Below are positions 77 through 42,538 of a stretch of 64,000 nt of DNA, one piece after another. Source of the stretch: Brucella cytisi. GTDB lineage: Bacteria > Pseudomonadota > Alphaproteobacteria > Rhizobiales > Rhizobiaceae. Made by a program: the position numbers and the translations under genes. The first letter of the stretch is position 1, and each line of letters opens with the position of its first letter. The notes beneath the pieces were generated by a model that was not told the DNA's origin, did not search any database, and saw only the letters and a program-made list of their open reading frames with translations. The DNA is taken from the NCBI GenBank assembly GCA_012103075.1, contig JAAVLQ010000002.1, positions 1,476,001 to 1,540,000 of the forward strand, read 5' to 3'.

Positions 77-223
77 ATTTGTCTCCTGTATCTCCCGCGC
101 GCCTCCAGAGCATTCGTTACCCGGGATATGAAATGCTCTGCTTTTCTTTTCAGCACTCAAAAGTGCCCTGACAATTTGTCTGGACTAGCATTCTCTCAAG
201 GCTGTTGGCCTTTTGGGAAAATG

Positions 224-952
224 CTAGTTTAGCGTTTCGGCCATCATGTAATCGCCGTCGAGCCAGAGCTGGACTGCCTGTCCGCGCAATCGGCTCTCCA
301 TGTCTTCGGCCGTCTTGTAAAGACCATCGATGGCAACGAGTTCTGCCTCCATCTTGCGGCAGAAAATGCGCGCATCGGCATTTCCGGCTGTTCCAGCCAT
401 CGCACGACCGCGCAGCGCGCCATAAAACGTGGATCGAGCCGCCAGCCACCACTTCCGCGCCGGACGCTACAGAACCAACAATCGTTACATCGCCGTCCGG
501 AAAGTAGACCGACTGACCAGACCGTACCGGCTCGGTAACCACCATGGACGGAACGGCCTTGACGAGTTGTACCGATGCGGGTGCCACCGGAGTGCGCTCC
601 TGCAACTTCGCTTCTGTGATCTCCGGGTCGAAATCTGCGGCAGGTTGTCCGCCACGCATCGCTGGCGGCATGCCCGCCCCAGCAGCGAGGGCCGCGCATT
701 TTCAAAGCCCGTGATCCAGACACCACGTTTAACCAAATCCTCAAGCAATTGAACCAATTGCGGACGCTCGATCGAAACGTTCTCCAGATCGAGAACGATC
801 GGACGATTCAGAAAGAAACCCACGGAACGGGCTGCAAGATCGTCCAGCTTGTCGAGCCAGCCATCGAGCGGCAGTTCAGGCGAGAGTACCAGCGCAAGAA
901 AGGATCTCCCTTTCAAACGGATTGGACGAGACTGTGTTAGCACTTGATTCAT
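224..952 (-). CDS. minC: Septum inhibitor MinC (two frameshifts)
   Basis: MinC inhibits FtsZ polymerisation away from midcell and works with MinD. The corrected product is 242 residues. The N-terminal domain starts [18 protein letters not shown]. The C-terminal MinC_C beta-helix includes [17 protein letters not shown] and the [17 protein letters not shown] stretch typical of the family. It ends in AETLN at 224. The frame breaks near 671-685, where a GGGG run seems one G short, and near 425-430, where TTTT seems one T too long. The two cancel, so start and stop are in the same frame. The ATG at 952 is chosen because it starts the family N-terminus. minD follows 148 bases downstream. The indels are probably sequencing errors. 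Confidence 0.9.
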
Positions 953-1224
953 CTTGGTTAAAAAACGGTTTATCCGGTCTATATGCACAATGGTTAACAG
1001 ATGGTTAATTTCTGAAGCCAGAACGCCCCCATTGCTGGAGCGGTCGGTCACTTTTGACGATCAAAGCATAACTATCGGCGAGGCATCAGCCTCCGGGCAC
1101 GGAACGCAACATTGTGCCCACCTGAACAGCCGAAAGCGCCTCCAGCCTGAAAACGACTCAGCTTATTCTTGATTGTAAACGGATATCAGGATCGATAATC
1201 ATTGTTTCTTCACCCATCCACAGA

Positions 1225-1769: not shown

Positions 1770-1799
1770 AGCCTGAAAAATTACGTGAGTAGAATATAG

Positions 1800-1916
1800 A
1801 AAAGCCCACAACGCTCGGGAGGAGGAGAACGTTGTGGGCTTAATCTATAAGCGCGATTGGGAGGAGGAGTATCGCGCTTTGGGTCCGGCTCTTGGGAGGA
1901 GGAGTGAACCGGACGC
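1800..1916 (-). ncRNA. Triple anti-SD hairpin array, left copy (Cuckoo/CcsR-type sRNAs)
   Basis: Read on the minus strand, three successive hairpins each display CCTCCTCCC in the loop. The stems are GTCCGG/CCGGAC (1909-1914 with 1883-1888, motif 1894-1902), AAGCGCGAT/ATCGCGCTT (1871-1879 with 1849-1857, motif 1859-1867) and AGCCCACAACG/CGTTGTGGGCT (1830-1840 with 1803-1813, motif 1817-1825). A T-rich run follows the last. Established knowledge: alphaproteobacterial 'Cuckoo' RNAs, including Rhodobacter CcsR1-4, carry CCUCCUCCC in hairpin loops and occur in tandem; the motif is complementary to Shine-Dalgarno sequences. Here I infer three processed sRNAs or one three-armed sRNA. I do not see the DUF1127 gene that precedes the Rhodobacter copies. 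Confidence 0.8.
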
Positions 1917-1991
1917 TTTTTAATAACCCCTCCGGCTGGCCTACTCAATCAACAAGCTTGCATTGCTGATATGCACTTTCAACAGATCCAA

Positions 1992-2030
1992 ATGAAAACC
2001 GCCTCGCAGCGAATGAACGCGCTGAGGCGG
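1992..2030 (-). terminator. Bulged hairpin with T tract upstream of left sRNA array
   Basis: The stem is CCGCCTC (1999-2005) with GAGGCGG (2024-2030), plus AGCG (2008-2011) with CGCT (2020-2023), separated by a two-base GC bulge. Read on the minus strand it is followed by TTTTCATTT, as expected of an intrinsic terminator or a stable processing stem. It lies about 80 bases before the left array. The plus-strand hairpin at 2395-2435 has the same geometry. Confidence 0.6.
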
Positions 2031-2394
2031 CATATCTCCCCGAAAGCCCCTAATCGAAGAAGATGGAGGAACTTACTCACAGCTTTAACGAAAATAAATA
2101 GACAATCTGCACGCACACTTGAGAATCTGGTGAACAATATCAGCCAATGGTTGAGAAACCTATCTCAACGAACTTTTCCGCGTCTGCAATCGTTCGACTA
2201 AACACTATTAAAGATCGGGTACAGTTCAGTCCTGCAATGCAATTAAAATGCTCTTATACCGGGTGGAACCTGAATGAGTATCACTCAATAATCCTACACA
2301 AATTTCAGTATTTTCTGAAAATTATAGAGTTCTATTAGGGGGTTGCTTTCTCCATGAGCACGGTTATTGTTCCTCTCACTTGGAGGAGGGAGTA

Positions 2395-2435
2395 CCGCCC
2401 CAGCGCGCTAGACCGCTGCGGGGCGGTTTCTTTTT
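2395..2435 (+). terminator. Bulged hairpin with T tract upstream of right sRNA array
   Basis: The stem is CCGCCCC (2395-2401) with GGGGCGG (2420-2426), and AGCG (2402-2405) with CGCT (2414-2417), again with a two-base GC bulge. TTTCTTTTT follows. Geometry and inner stem match the minus-strand hairpin at 1992-2030. It sits about 75 bases before the right array, so the two units look like inverted duplicates. Confidence 0.65.
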
Positions 2436-2509
2436 AGCTACCCAAAATGCATATCTGCATTGCAGCGTTGGCCCTTGTAAGCAGCGGCCCTTATTCCTAT
2501 TTTGATCTT

Positions 2510-2635
2510 GTTCGGTTTTACTCCTCCTCCCAAAAACCGAACCCAAAGCGCGATACTCCTCCTCCCAATCGCGCTTTATAGATCCGCCCACTGCACATTC
2601 CTCCTCCCAGTGCAGTGGGCGTTCTCTTTTCTGGA
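2510..2635 (+). ncRNA. Triple anti-SD hairpin array, right copy (Cuckoo/CcsR-type sRNAs)
   Basis: Three plus-strand hairpins carry CCTCCTCCC in their loops. They are GTTCGGTTTT/AAAACCGAAC (2510-2519 with 2533-2542, motif 2523-2531), AAAGCGCGAT/ATCGCGCTTT (2545-2554 with 2568-2577, motif 2558-2566) and GCCCACTGCAC/GTGCAGTGGGC (2586-2596 with 2610-2620, motif 2600-2608). TTCTCTTTT follows. The middle hairpin is nearly identical to the middle hairpin of the left array; the outer stems have diverged in compensating pairs. Family as for the left copy. Likely role: base-pairing to ribosome-binding sites or acting as sponges. Target genes cannot be read from the sequence. Confidence 0.82.
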
Positions 2636-2749
2636 ACTCTCCACACATATCGGAAATTTGTACCCAATCAGGTGACCCTGTGGCTATTTCAGTAGTTTTA
2701 AGGGTTTGCAGGTAATTTCTGCGCGTGATGCACGAGGGAGCGGGGTTCC

Positions 2750-4430
2750 ATGTTCTTCAGCACGACCTTCAAATCGGCCAGACCGTCGCTGCTATGCGCG
2801 CCTATGCTCTGGCTAGGTTTTGTTCTCGTTCTGCTGATCGCGCTTCTGTCATTCAGGCTCAATGCCCCCATTGGACCAATGTACTGGGACAGCTACATCT
2901 ACTTCGACGCAGCCCAGCGCATAAAAATGGAACAGATTCCCGGTGTAGACTTTTCCACGCCTGTCGGGCCGCTTGGCTACTATCTTTTGCATGGGGACAC
3001 TCCTTGTTCCCGCAGGCACAACCGCTTTTGCTCGTTCAATGGTCAATATTGGTCGTTGCAGCCCCTCTGACGGCATGGGTACTGACAGAGCTTCCCCATA
3101 ATCGAATAACCGGATTTCTCATCCTTGTTCCATTTCTGGTTTTCGCAATCTTTCCGGCCAATACACAAAGCTTTTATCCCTATCCCGGACTGGATGGGTT
3201 TGGCATTTATAATCGCCATACATCGCTTTTGCTCTACGTGCTGATATGTGGGTTGCTGTTTATGCGAAACGGCGCAAAGCTCGCGCTGTTTTGTGCGGCA
3301 GTGATGCTCGCCTTGTTTTTGATGAAGGTCACGGGCTTTCTTGCAGGTGGACTGTTCGGGCTTGCGGCACTTCTCGCTGGACGAATCTCTTTACGCAACG
3401 TTCTGCTGGCCGCCGCCATTACCGTTGCATTTCTGCTCGTCCATGAATTGCACAATGGGAATATCGGCGGATATATTCGCGATATTGCTACATTGATCGC
3501 CCTGAACGAAGAAGCCCTGCTCCCACGTTTCCTGACCGTCATATCGTCGAAGCTGGACGTCATTCTGCCAGCGGCGATCCTTGTTCTCACTCTTTTCTGG
3601 AATGAACAGTTCCATTCCGGCAAACGCAATCGCTTTTTCGACCGGAGTTCGGTCTGGCTCACCGTTGGGCTTCTGGGTGGCATCATCCTTGAGACACAGA
3701 ACACCGGAAGCCGAAATTCATATTCCTTTGGCCTATCCTGCTCATGATTTTTCAGCGGATAAAAGCTGGCACCGAGAAACTCAAAATCGCCTTCCTCGTG
3801 CTCGCTGCCTTCTGCGTCATCCCGACATTCACCAAGGTTGCGCACCGTGCCCTGCGCGCCGTTGCCGCCGCCCCGACTTATGTGCGACCGACTTTACCGG
3901 AATTGAAGAATCTCGGGCAGGTGTTGACCCGACCCGATTTTCTGCAACGGGCAGAGCTTTTCGAAACCCACTACCCGGAAAACAATGCAGCCTATGACGC
4001 GCTGGCAGCGCAAGGCCAACTACCTAGCTGGCAGCTTTATTCGGAAATCGATTTCCGTGTCTACTGGCTCGTTTCTGCAAACCGGATGGTGAAGGATCTG
4101 AAATCCTTCGAGACCCAGAACAACGTTCGCCTGCAAAGCATCATGTCGCTCGACTTCGTCAATCCGTTTGCATGGATATTGGATCGCGATGCGACACGGC
4201 ATATCCAGATCGGCGCCGATCCCTTCCGCACCGTCCCGGCGTTATCCGAGGAAACGAAGGCTGCCGTAGAAGCAACCGACGGCATATTGCGCCCGAAATG
4301 TCCGACGACGACCAATCGTCTTGCCTTACAGAAAATATATGCCGAAGCACTGCAGGATCGCGCCGTCGTCGCTTTGAACCCCTGTTGGGATTTGCTGCTT
4401 CGCCCCGGTCTGATCCGTAATCAGAAATGA
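2750..4430 (+). CDS. GT-C-like multi-spanning membrane protein (two frameshifts)
   Basis: The corrected product is about 560 residues: an N-terminal membrane segment, a short external loop with an acidic residue in a WDSYIYFDAAQR context followed by DFSTPVGPLGYYL, a run of hydrophobic helices, and a soluble C-terminal part of about 220 residues. That first-loop pattern is typical of GT-C fold glycosyltransferases, which use polyprenyl-phosphate sugars. The frame breaks near 2997 (GGGG, one G short) and near 3705 (one base short). It converges on the minus-strand donor-sugar cluster and ends one base from its first stop. I infer that it transfers the sugar made by that cluster; the acceptor is unknown. 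It could also be an uncharacterised membrane protein without enzymatic activity. Confidence 0.6.
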
Positions 4431-25145: not shown

Positions 25146-25425
25146 TTTTTCCTCACTGATTGGGGAGACGCAAAGAGCCATTCGCGCATCGCAAGATGCG
25201 CGTTGAAAGACATGAGACACGGGATTGGCCAGCCGCAAATAAACAGCCTGACCGCAACAAACTATGCCTCGAAGGGAGGACCGGAACCGAAACTGAATAT
25301 ACTGGGCATGGACTTCACCCCGAAGCTATGAGCGGGAAGTTCGGGGCAGCAACCCGTAAGGCAATAGTTTGCCACACAAGATTGCGCGCCAACCGGACAC
25401 CCCGCCCGTGGACGTACTCGTTCAA

Positions 25426-25600
25426 GGCAGGTCTCCCGCTCACGGATCAACGTTCTGTCCGCCTTCCCAGCCAAAGCCAGTGACGTGATAGACAAAACTC
25501 TCCGCTTACAGTTGCGGGGGCAGCTCCGGCATTGCCGCATCCGTCATGGATGAAACGCACCGGATTCCCGTCTTAGCTTTCGACTCAACGAATCGAAAGA
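25426..25600 (-). promoter_or_regulatory. Cobalamin riboswitch upstream of nrdHIEF
   Basis: On the minus strand the conserved blocks occur in order: GACGGGAATCCGGTGC (about 25557-25572), AATGCCGGAGCTGCCCCCGC then AACTGTAAGCGG (B12 box core, about 25501-25536), TCACTGG and TGGGAAGGCGG, and the 3' block GCGGGAGACCTGCC (25426-25439). A small hairpin (CTTTCGA/TCGAAAG, 25577-25599) precedes them. Cobalamin-binding riboswitches repress downstream genes when B12 is available. Placing one on the B12-independent class Ib reductase implies the cell also has a B12-dependent reductase (NrdJ) elsewhere; that is an inference. The 280-base leader after it (25146-25425) has a hairpin at 25318-25346 without a T tract. 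Confidence 0.92.
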
Positions 25601-25607
25601 ACCTAGA

Positions 25608-25621
25608 ACACTATATATAGT
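25608..25621. promoter_or_regulatory. Possible NrdR box
   Basis: ACACTATATATAGT resembles the NrdR-box consensus (acaCwATATaTwGtgt), with a good left half and weaker right half. It lies just upstream of the riboswitch, where the nrd promoter is expected. NrdR boxes usually come in pairs; I see only one, so the call is tentative. Confidence 0.45.
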
Positions 25622-42170: not shown

Positions 42171-42538
42171 TGTTCCCTCCTCCCATCCATTCTGTAAGCG
42201 GTTTGATAAAATCGAAAACGGTTTGGATAGCGAAAAGGTTGCAGAGGACCGCATTTCTGTCAAGCTGCAGATTCAGCACCGCACTTCACTTCATCCAATG
42301 TCAGTTCTATAATGGCAGTATTTCAATAGCTTATCGCTGCATCTCGTTGTTGATTAGTACTCCAAGTTCTCGGCCTTTCAAATGTTTCAGAACGAAAGTT
42401 TAAACAAACTTGAAATCGGTTTGGATTTCGTGCACCCTAAATGTTGCACCGGTTCAAAGAACTCAACCGATCAATTGTTAATCGCAAGGAAGCAGCTATA
42501 ATCCGCTGCCTTGCCTGCCTGAATAATTCGAAAGCCAA
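42171..42538. promoter_or_regulatory. thuE-thuR divergent promoter with repeated CGGTTTG sites
   Basis: CGGTTTG occurs at 42199-42205, 42219-42225 and 42417-42423. Each is in a near-palindromic A/T context, the last flanked by GAAATC and GGATTTC. A CCGG-centred ACCGGTT lies near 42449. These are good candidates for ThuR (LacI-type) operators, the first two near the thuE promoter and the last near thuR. No gene lies here. Confidence 0.55.

What the first reader, a model, noticed from the sequence alone, without database searches (positions are those of the whole stretch)
1800..2635. Inverted twin arrays of anti-Shine-Dalgarno hairpins
Two arrays of three hairpins, one on each strand and pointing outwards, all present CCTCCTCCC in the loop (motifs at 1817-1825, 1859-1867, 1894-1902 on the complementary strand; 2523-2531, 2558-2566, 2600-2608). 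The middle hairpins are nearly identical; outer stems differ but remain paired, which implies selection on structure. Established knowledge: Cuckoo/CcsR RNAs in Alphaproteobacteria have this motif. A divergent pair of three-armed units without a DUF1127 gene is an arrangement I do not know of. It could act as a strong, broad translational silencer or sponge.
Basis: partly seen in the sequence, partly recalled or inferred. Interest (0 to 1): 0.8.

Follow-up and report, generated by a model that had tools for sequence, protein, structure and literature searches.

The report
Twin RNA silencers with candidate decoys
Two copies of a known kind of small RNA, which silences messages by covering their ribosome-binding sites, sit back to back here, and one is preceded by a short, strongly conserved element carrying the matching ribosome-binding-site sequence, which may be a built-in decoy.

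Summary
The six CCTCCTCCC motifs and two outward-facing triple hairpins are real. Both units pass Rfam RF02344 (alphar14: NfeR1/Cuckoo), so they are known anti-Shine-Dalgarno sRNAs; their stems covary. The genome has eight copies, three beside DUF1127 genes. The divergent pair is one syntenic locus in 11 of 35 genus genomes: a lineage-specific arrangement.

More interesting is what lies between the arrays. Each unit is preceded on its own strand by a short element ending in a GC hairpin and T-run. The + strand element (about 2338-2435) contains ACTTGGAGGA, invariant in 29 of 29 genomes and complementary to the alphar14 loops. Of 49 model hits in the genus, 48 lie 59-212 nt upstream of an alphar14 copy. 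It has no shared ORF and no Rfam match, and persists without alphar14 in one genome. I propose a candidate decoy RNA, probability about 0.35. Against it: no expression data, a site predicted mostly paired, and a weak counterpart on the other strand.

The parts
1799..1918 (-). alphar14 sRNA unit m (three hairpins, loops CCTCCTCCC)
   Evidence: Rfam RF02344, 79.4 bits against threshold 58.8; fold z -9.2
1959..1975 (-). palindromic box TGCATATCAGCAATGCA upstream of unit m
   Evidence: this and 2448-2464 are the only two matches in the window at up to 2 mismatches; 0.16 expected
1999..2041 (-). m element: weak SD-like GGGGAG (2036-2041) and GC hairpin (1999-2030) followed by a T-rich stretch
   Evidence: R1 model hit, 39.7 bits; similar to the p element; longest match to the loop complement only 5 nt
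2303..2320 (+). palindrome TTTCAGTATTTTCTGAAA, putative control site of the p element
   Evidence: only match in the window at up to 2 mismatches, 0.00 expected; TTTCAGTA...TGAAA in 27 of 27 element-bearing rows and in G003 and G006
2338..2435 (+). p element: candidate small RNA (5' end inferred), with conserved TTGCTTT (2343-2349) and TTATTGT (2364-2370)
   Evidence: 29 of 35 genus genomes have a hit of 107 bits or more; no shared ORF
2378..2389 (+). ACTTGGAGGAGG: Shine-Dalgarno-like site complementary to the alphar14 loops
   Evidence: ACTTGGAGGA invariant in 29 of 29 sequences, 28 distinct
2394..2435 (+). intrinsic terminator of the p element (GC hairpin, then TTTCTTTTT)
   Evidence: folds; flagged in part by the terminator scan; hairpin pairs nearly invariant
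2448..2464 (+). palindromic box TGCATATCTGCATTGCA upstream of unit p
2474..2502 (+). promoter-like CTTGTA-N17-CTATTT of unit p, near the published CTTAGAC-N17-CTATAT
   Evidence: read from sequence; consensus from a passage of PMC10746234; not flagged by the E. coli-type promoter scan
2504..2625 (+). alphar14 sRNA unit p (three hairpins, loops CCTCCTCCC)
   Evidence: Rfam RF02344, 82.4 bits; fold z -11.1 (on 2504-2628)

Best explanation
The locus holds two divergently oriented alphar14 (NfeR1/Cuckoo) sRNA genes. Each should make a three-hairpin RNA of about 120 nt that presents CCUCCUCCC in every loop and lowers translation of many mRNAs by pairing with their Shine-Dalgarno regions. Family membership and conserved structure are shown here; transcription and silencing in this host are inferred from published work on NfeR1. 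Each unit is the downstream half of a cassette seen repeatedly in the genus: a short upstream element (SD-like site plus terminator), a promoter region, then alphar14. In the p cassette the upstream element is best read as a separate conserved RNA whose ACUUGGAGGAG can pair with the alphar14 loops and so may titrate them. That last step is inference, at about 0.35.
For: Rfam hits at 82.4 and 79.4 bits. Covariation in 39 units. alphar14 in 35 of 35 genus genomes and in 60 of 61 genomes of a family sample, 56 of them over the cut-off. Published NfeR1: three hairpins, aSD loops, sigma70 promoter, target silencing with redundant motifs (passages of PMC10746234, PMC7143759, PMC8844928). Cassette: 28 of 29 strong and 20 of 20 weak R1 hits lie 59-212 nt upstream of an alphar14 copy on the same strand. 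ACTTGGAGGA invariant in 29 of 29. The p element pairs with the loops at -20.8 kcal/mol, reached by 0.425% of 4000 random 97-nt stretches of the window. Six example sites (four p, one b, one c) pair better with the loop than with a recalled 16S tail; a recalled canonical SD does the reverse.
Against: No transcript was seen for either strand. In S. meliloti only one of six copies was reliably detected by Northern (PMC7143759, passage), so either unit may be silent. The promoter scan flagged no site at either unit or at the p element (E. coli-type consensus). For the decoy: GGAGGAG is predicted largely paired inside the p RNA (mean unpaired 0.12 over 29 sequences). The m element matches the loops poorly (5 nt here; 12% of random stretches do as well). 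Six of 35 genus genomes have alphar14 but no strong p-element hit. In this genome only three of eight alphar14 copies have a recognisable upstream element.
Confidence: 0.85

Rival explanations
1. The upstream elements are only transcription terminators that insulate alphar14 from read-through; the purine-rich stretch serves the terminator by pairing with the U-run.
For: The consensus fold pairs AGGAG with the U-rich tail in 28-29 of 29 sequences; the elements end in a GC hairpin and T-rich tail.
Against: Invariance covers ACTTGGAGGA, TTGCTTT, TTATT and an upstream palindrome, more than a terminator should need. The element persists in G003 without alphar14 and in G006 across an insertion that separates the two. 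Of 176 other terminator-like sites 5 have 7 nt or more of loop complement, against 39 of 39 in classes p, b and c, which are related by descent.
Confidence: 0.35
2. The p element is an sRNA with main targets other than alphar14 (for example mRNAs, or other CU-rich sRNAs such as AbcR).
For: TTGCTTT and TTATT are as invariant as the SD-like site; kept where no alphar14 copy follows it.
Against: Location directly upstream of alphar14 in 48 of 49 model hits points to alphar14.
Confidence: 0.2
3. The divergent pair works as one unit (a double-dose silencer or co-regulated switch).
For: Both copies are found together in 11 genomes, with matching palindromic boxes and a middle hairpin identical over 32 nt.
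Against: No such pair was found in the other 24 of 35 genus genomes, some of them in many contigs; the m copy of G019 scores only 39.6 bits, below the cut-off; p and m copies group apart.
Confidence: 0.15
4. The p element is a tiny protein-coding gene (MSTVIVPLTWRREY...).
For: An ORF of 27 codons spans it in this genome.
Against: The start codon is lost (ACG, ATA) in several species, and no frame is shared by the 29 sequences.
Confidence: 0.03

Closest known systems
alphar14 / NfeR1 / Cuckoo sRNAs (Rfam RF02344)
   Same: Three hairpins, CCUCCUCCC in each loop, variable but paired stems, several copies per genome, similar promoter at unit p
   Different: Here two copies are divergent at one locus, and some copies are preceded by an SD-like element; neither is mentioned in the passages I read, but the main Cuckoo and alphar14 survey papers were not available to me
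CcsR1-4 of Rhodobacter (RF02791) in the ccaF1 (DUF1127) operon
   Same: Loop motif and presumed action on ribosome-binding sites
   Different: Scores below the CcsR1 threshold; no DUF1127 gene here, although three other copies in this genome follow one
CrfA sponge of the SisA-D (alphaR8) sRNAs in Caulobacter
   Same: An alphaproteobacterial RNA that titrates a sibling family of sRNAs with an anti-Shine-Dalgarno 10-mer; the model for how the p element could work (PMC12559287, passages)
   Different: CrfA acts with Hfq and was shown by experiment; NfeR1 is reported as Hfq-independent; no membership is claimed here

Membership tests
alphar14 (RF02344) | Score over Rfam gathering threshold, full length | tested here: met
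   82.4 and 79.4 bits against 58.8, model 1-123
alphar14 (RF02344) | Three hairpins with CCUCCUCCC unpaired in each loop | tested here: met
alphar14 (RF02344) | Stems vary but stay paired | tested here: met
alphar14 (RF02344) | Alpha-type sigma70 promoter directly upstream | tested here: inconclusive
   Unit p has CTTGTA-N17-CTATTT, near the published consensus; unit m is weaker by eye; the E. coli-type scan flagged neither; no start-site data
alphar14 (RF02344) | Hfq-independent silencing at translation starts | not testable with these tools
   published for NfeR1 only
CcsR (RF02791) | Score over CcsR1 threshold | tested here: not met
   26.8 and 26.7 bits against 65.3
CcsR (RF02791) | Co-transcribed with a DUF1127 gene | tested here: not met
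   nearest DUF1127 on this contig about 36 kb away
sponge/decoy RNA (p element) | Complementary to the target-binding site of an sRNA | tested here: met
   8 nt or more in 29 of 29; -20.8 kcal/mol
sponge/decoy RNA (p element) | Pairing site accessible | tested here: not met
   mean unpaired probability 0.12; a thermodynamic prediction only
sponge/decoy RNA (p element) | Transcribed as its own RNA | tested here: inconclusive
   conserved palindrome and terminator, kept without alphar14 in G003; no promoter flagged; no RNA data
sponge/decoy RNA (p element) | Lowers activity of the sRNA in vivo | not testable with these tools
   none

The most novel reading that the evidence does not exclude
In environmental Brucella/Ochrobactrum species, anti-Shine-Dalgarno silencer RNAs are encoded in repeated cassettes together with their own decoy: a short, separately made RNA carrying an anti-loop Shine-Dalgarno site. 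Silencer and antidote lie about 70 nt apart, and the cell sets translation by the balance of the two.
Probability: 0.35. Interest if true: 0.75.

Novelty: new variant of a known kind. Interest (0 to 1): 0.5.

Why it matters
Anti-Shine-Dalgarno sRNAs of this family were found in 60 of 61 genomes of a family sample, often in several copies with the same loop motif. In my view it is an open question how cells set the dose of such broad silencers. A conserved anti-loop RNA in the same cassette would be a direct, testable answer, and would join CrfA of Caulobacter as an alphaproteobacterial decoy against a sibling family of anti-Shine-Dalgarno sRNAs. If the decoy reading fails, what remains is an ordinary pair of alphar14 genes.

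Tried and rejected
Coding reading of the p element: rejected, no shared frame or start. The intramolecular hairpin CUUUCUCC/GGAGGAGGG of this genome: not kept as a pair in other species. m element as a strong decoy: rejected, weak complementarity. CcsR membership: rejected. Inversion of a 23-kb segment as origin of the twin: not shown; in G004 the minC-side flank lies about 450 bases from the p copy without unit m, and an m-like copy lies about 23 kb away, so insertion or loss of an m cassette is at least as likely. Plasmid collection: no match. Viral contigs: no match to the p-element pattern. 16S tail pattern in the own genome: no match, so the 16S comparison rests on a recalled tail, and on chosen example sites.

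Rows and controls. In one search, 44 loci gave 39 distinct units; the five others were identical to a kept unit or fell outside my position, size or motif limits (three of them m copies: G007, G019, G002), so the tree and pair counts hold 8 of 11 m copies. In one search two rows (c_G013a, c_G024) were picked at a wrong site by my pattern; one search gives them as 7 and 8 nt. G019's m element was not found by the pattern and is not among the 10 m rows. The first terminator control found only 5 sites, none above 4 nt; I loosened the criteria for (176 sites after dropping those that matched alphar14 or element motifs). Random 30-mers reach 7 nt in 141 of 20000.

Selection. The 29 p elements of alignment A2 were picked with the exact 11-mer. 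The BLAST-chosen set agrees (one locus each from 30 of 35 genomes; 27 rows carry the element, all with the motif; G032 and G028 lack it and the G006 row is that genome's other copy), and so does the model search (the same 29 genomes). The model was built from those 29, so their scores are not independent. The family-level search used strict filters with 23 candidates scored per listed genome; absence outside the genus is provisional.

Papers. The Cuckoo paper (PMC4615179) and the alphar14 survey (PMC3346310) were not held, so an earlier description of the divergent pair or the element there cannot be excluded. That I found no description of the element rests on paper searches, in an open-licence library only.

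Full report
OBSERVATION. The minus unit (1799-1918) and plus unit (2504-2628) each fold into three hairpins with the motif in the loops, far more stable than shuffles (z -9.2 and -11.1; 0 of 200 as stable).

WHAT THE ARRAYS ARE. A scan of the whole window against Rfam gives RF02344 (ar14) for both: 82.4 and 79.4 bits against a threshold of 58.8, full length. CcsR1 scores only 26.8 and 26.7 against 65.3. The papers I could read describe alphar14 as three hairpins, each with an identical, ultraconserved CCUCCUCCC and highly different stems; the founding member is NfeR1 of S. meliloti, Hfq-independent (PMC10746234, passages). NfeR1 occurs in six copies of which only one was reliably detected by Northern, and its three motifs were confirmed genetically to act redundantly (PMC7143759, passages; also PMC8844928, passages). 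An earlier paper already proposed grouping three- and four-hairpin CCUCCUCCC RNAs as one multi-copy family blocking ribosome-binding sites (PMC3927594, section 2.7). The units are therefore a known kind.

STRUCTURE UNDER SELECTION. In 39 distinct units (of 44 loci given) 96.7% of cells in the three helices pair, 15 of 28 pairs have changes on both sides (shuffled 9.5) and 118 cells have such changes (shuffled 42.0). Sliding the partners by 1-3 columns gives at most 46.0% paired and 16 such cells. The measure 'further pair types' does not exceed shuffles (32 against 31.8).

HOST. I infer a Brucella in the wide sense that includes Ochrobactrum; that GTDB uses the name so is recalled.

COPIES AND CONTEXT. 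The own genome has eight alphar14 copies. Three follow a DUF1127 gene (Pfam PF06568 at 64.3, 57.4 and 51.7 bits); the nearest DUF1127 to the twin on its contig is about 36 kb off. All 35 genus genomes searched have alphar14. A divergent pair was found in 11 of 35: G000, G002, G007, G008, G010, G012, G018, G019, G029, G033, G034; the m copy of G019 is below the cut-off (39.6 bits), and pairs split over contigs would be missed. All ten other pairs share the minC-side flank with this genome, and nine of ten the other flank. The neighbour is minC-like: MinC_C at 45 bits (cut-off 33.2) and MinC_N at 23.7 (below its cut-off of 27.3) in two frames. The 27 plus and 8 minus copies in the tree form two groups (support 100/98). 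In a family sample (61 genomes; row list cut short) I saw tandem pairs and one convergent pair but no divergent one outside the genus. I read the twin as a lineage-specific neighbourhood.

THE ELEMENT BETWEEN THE ARRAYS. Aligning seven twin loci showed that each alphar14 unit is preceded on its own strand by a short element ending in a GC hairpin and T-rich tail, then a palindromic box, then the promoter region. In the plus cassette ('p element') the segment before the hairpin is ACTTGGAGGAGGGAG. BLAST-chosen p loci from 30 of the 35 genomes showed the element in 27 rows, always with the motif. Two more genomes carry it apart from alphar14 (G003) or separated from it by an insertion (G006). 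Over these 29 sequences (28 distinct) the invariant runs outside the hairpin are TTGCTTT, TTATT and ACTTGGAGGA. A palindrome TTTCAGTA...TGAAA lies just upstream. No reading frame is shared. Rfam gives nothing there even at E up to 5. A covariance model finds one strong hit (107 bits or more) in 29 of 35 genus genomes and no hit in the 148 other genomes of the family sample (strict filters). An exact-pattern scan of species-level genome contigs gave 21 hits, 19 titled Brucella or Ochrobactrum and 2 'Rhizobiales bacterium'.

A REPEATED CASSETTE. The model's 20 weaker hits (34-49 bits) are all upstream of an alphar14 copy on the same strand. Together 48 of 49 hits lie 59-212 nt upstream, 36 of them 66-71 nt, the exception being G003. 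The related elements keep purine-rich sites in other registers of the same loop: class b 3 of 3 with 7 nt; class c 7 of 7 with 7-8 nt; classes m and d are weaker (2 of 10 and 0 of 4 reach 7 nt). Among 176 other terminator-like sites 5 reach 7 nt. Rows within a class are related by descent and not independent. In the window's own genome three of eight alphar14 copies have such an element (p, m and the copy at C2:792782); in the DUF1127-linked three and two others I recognised none.

MECHANISM. Best supported: alphar14 RNAs silence mRNAs by loop-SD pairing (shown for NfeR1 elsewhere, inferred here). Proposed: the p element is a decoy. Its best pairing with the loops is -20.8 kcal/mol, reached by 0.425% of 4000 random stretches of the window; the m element is unremarkable (11.8%). 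As isolated sites, four p, one b and one c example pair better with the loop than with a recalled 16S tail, and a canonical SD does the opposite. A close precedent for the action is CrfA, which titrates four sibling sRNAs bearing an anti-Shine-Dalgarno 10-mer in Caulobacter (PMC12559287, passages).

AGAINST. No expression data. The SD-like site is predicted mostly paired inside the p RNA (mean unpaired 0.12), with different partners in different species, and the consensus fold pairs part of it with the U-run, so an insulating terminator is about as likely. The fold of the p element is only modestly more stable than shuffles (z -2.3, 3 of 200 as stable). The E. coli-type promoter scan flagged no site for the p element or for either alphar14 unit. 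Six of 35 genus genomes have alphar14 but no strong p-element hit.

VERDICT. The arrays are new members of a known family in a divergent arrangement. The cassette with a conserved anti-loop site is a new variant if transcribed, and worth one RNA-seq look.

Noticed in passing
L068:1500-1624 (G033, m copy): Hairpin 1 looks chimeric by eye: its 5' half resembles the m copies and its 3' half the p copies, as if the twins had exchanged sequence.
   Followed up: no
window 150-1051, - strand: A minC-like gene is split over two reading frames (MinC_N below cut-off, MinC_C above). The assembly is rated 85.78% complete and 6.38% contaminated, so sequencing indels are a likely cause.
   Followed up: partly
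window 2725-4430, + strand: The reading frames next to unit p look broken over frames and have no Pfam match.
   Followed up: no
window 25409-25621, - strand: Cobalamin riboswitch, 113.2 bits.
   Followed up: no
window 42176-42184: A seventh, isolated CCTCCTCCC.
   Followed up: no
L097 (G006): An insertion of about 145 bases separates the p element from its alphar14 unit (distance 212 against about 68); its origin was not examined.
   Followed up: no
G045, G052, G057, G087, G090: Same-strand alphar14 copies a few hundred bases apart occur in these and some other genomes of the family sample.
   Followed up: no
window 1959-1975 and 2448-2464: A palindromic box precedes the five non-DUF1127 alphar14 copies of this genome in similar form; it may be the conserved 29-nt stretch reported for NfeR1 promoters, but I did not compare the letters.
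   Followed up: partly
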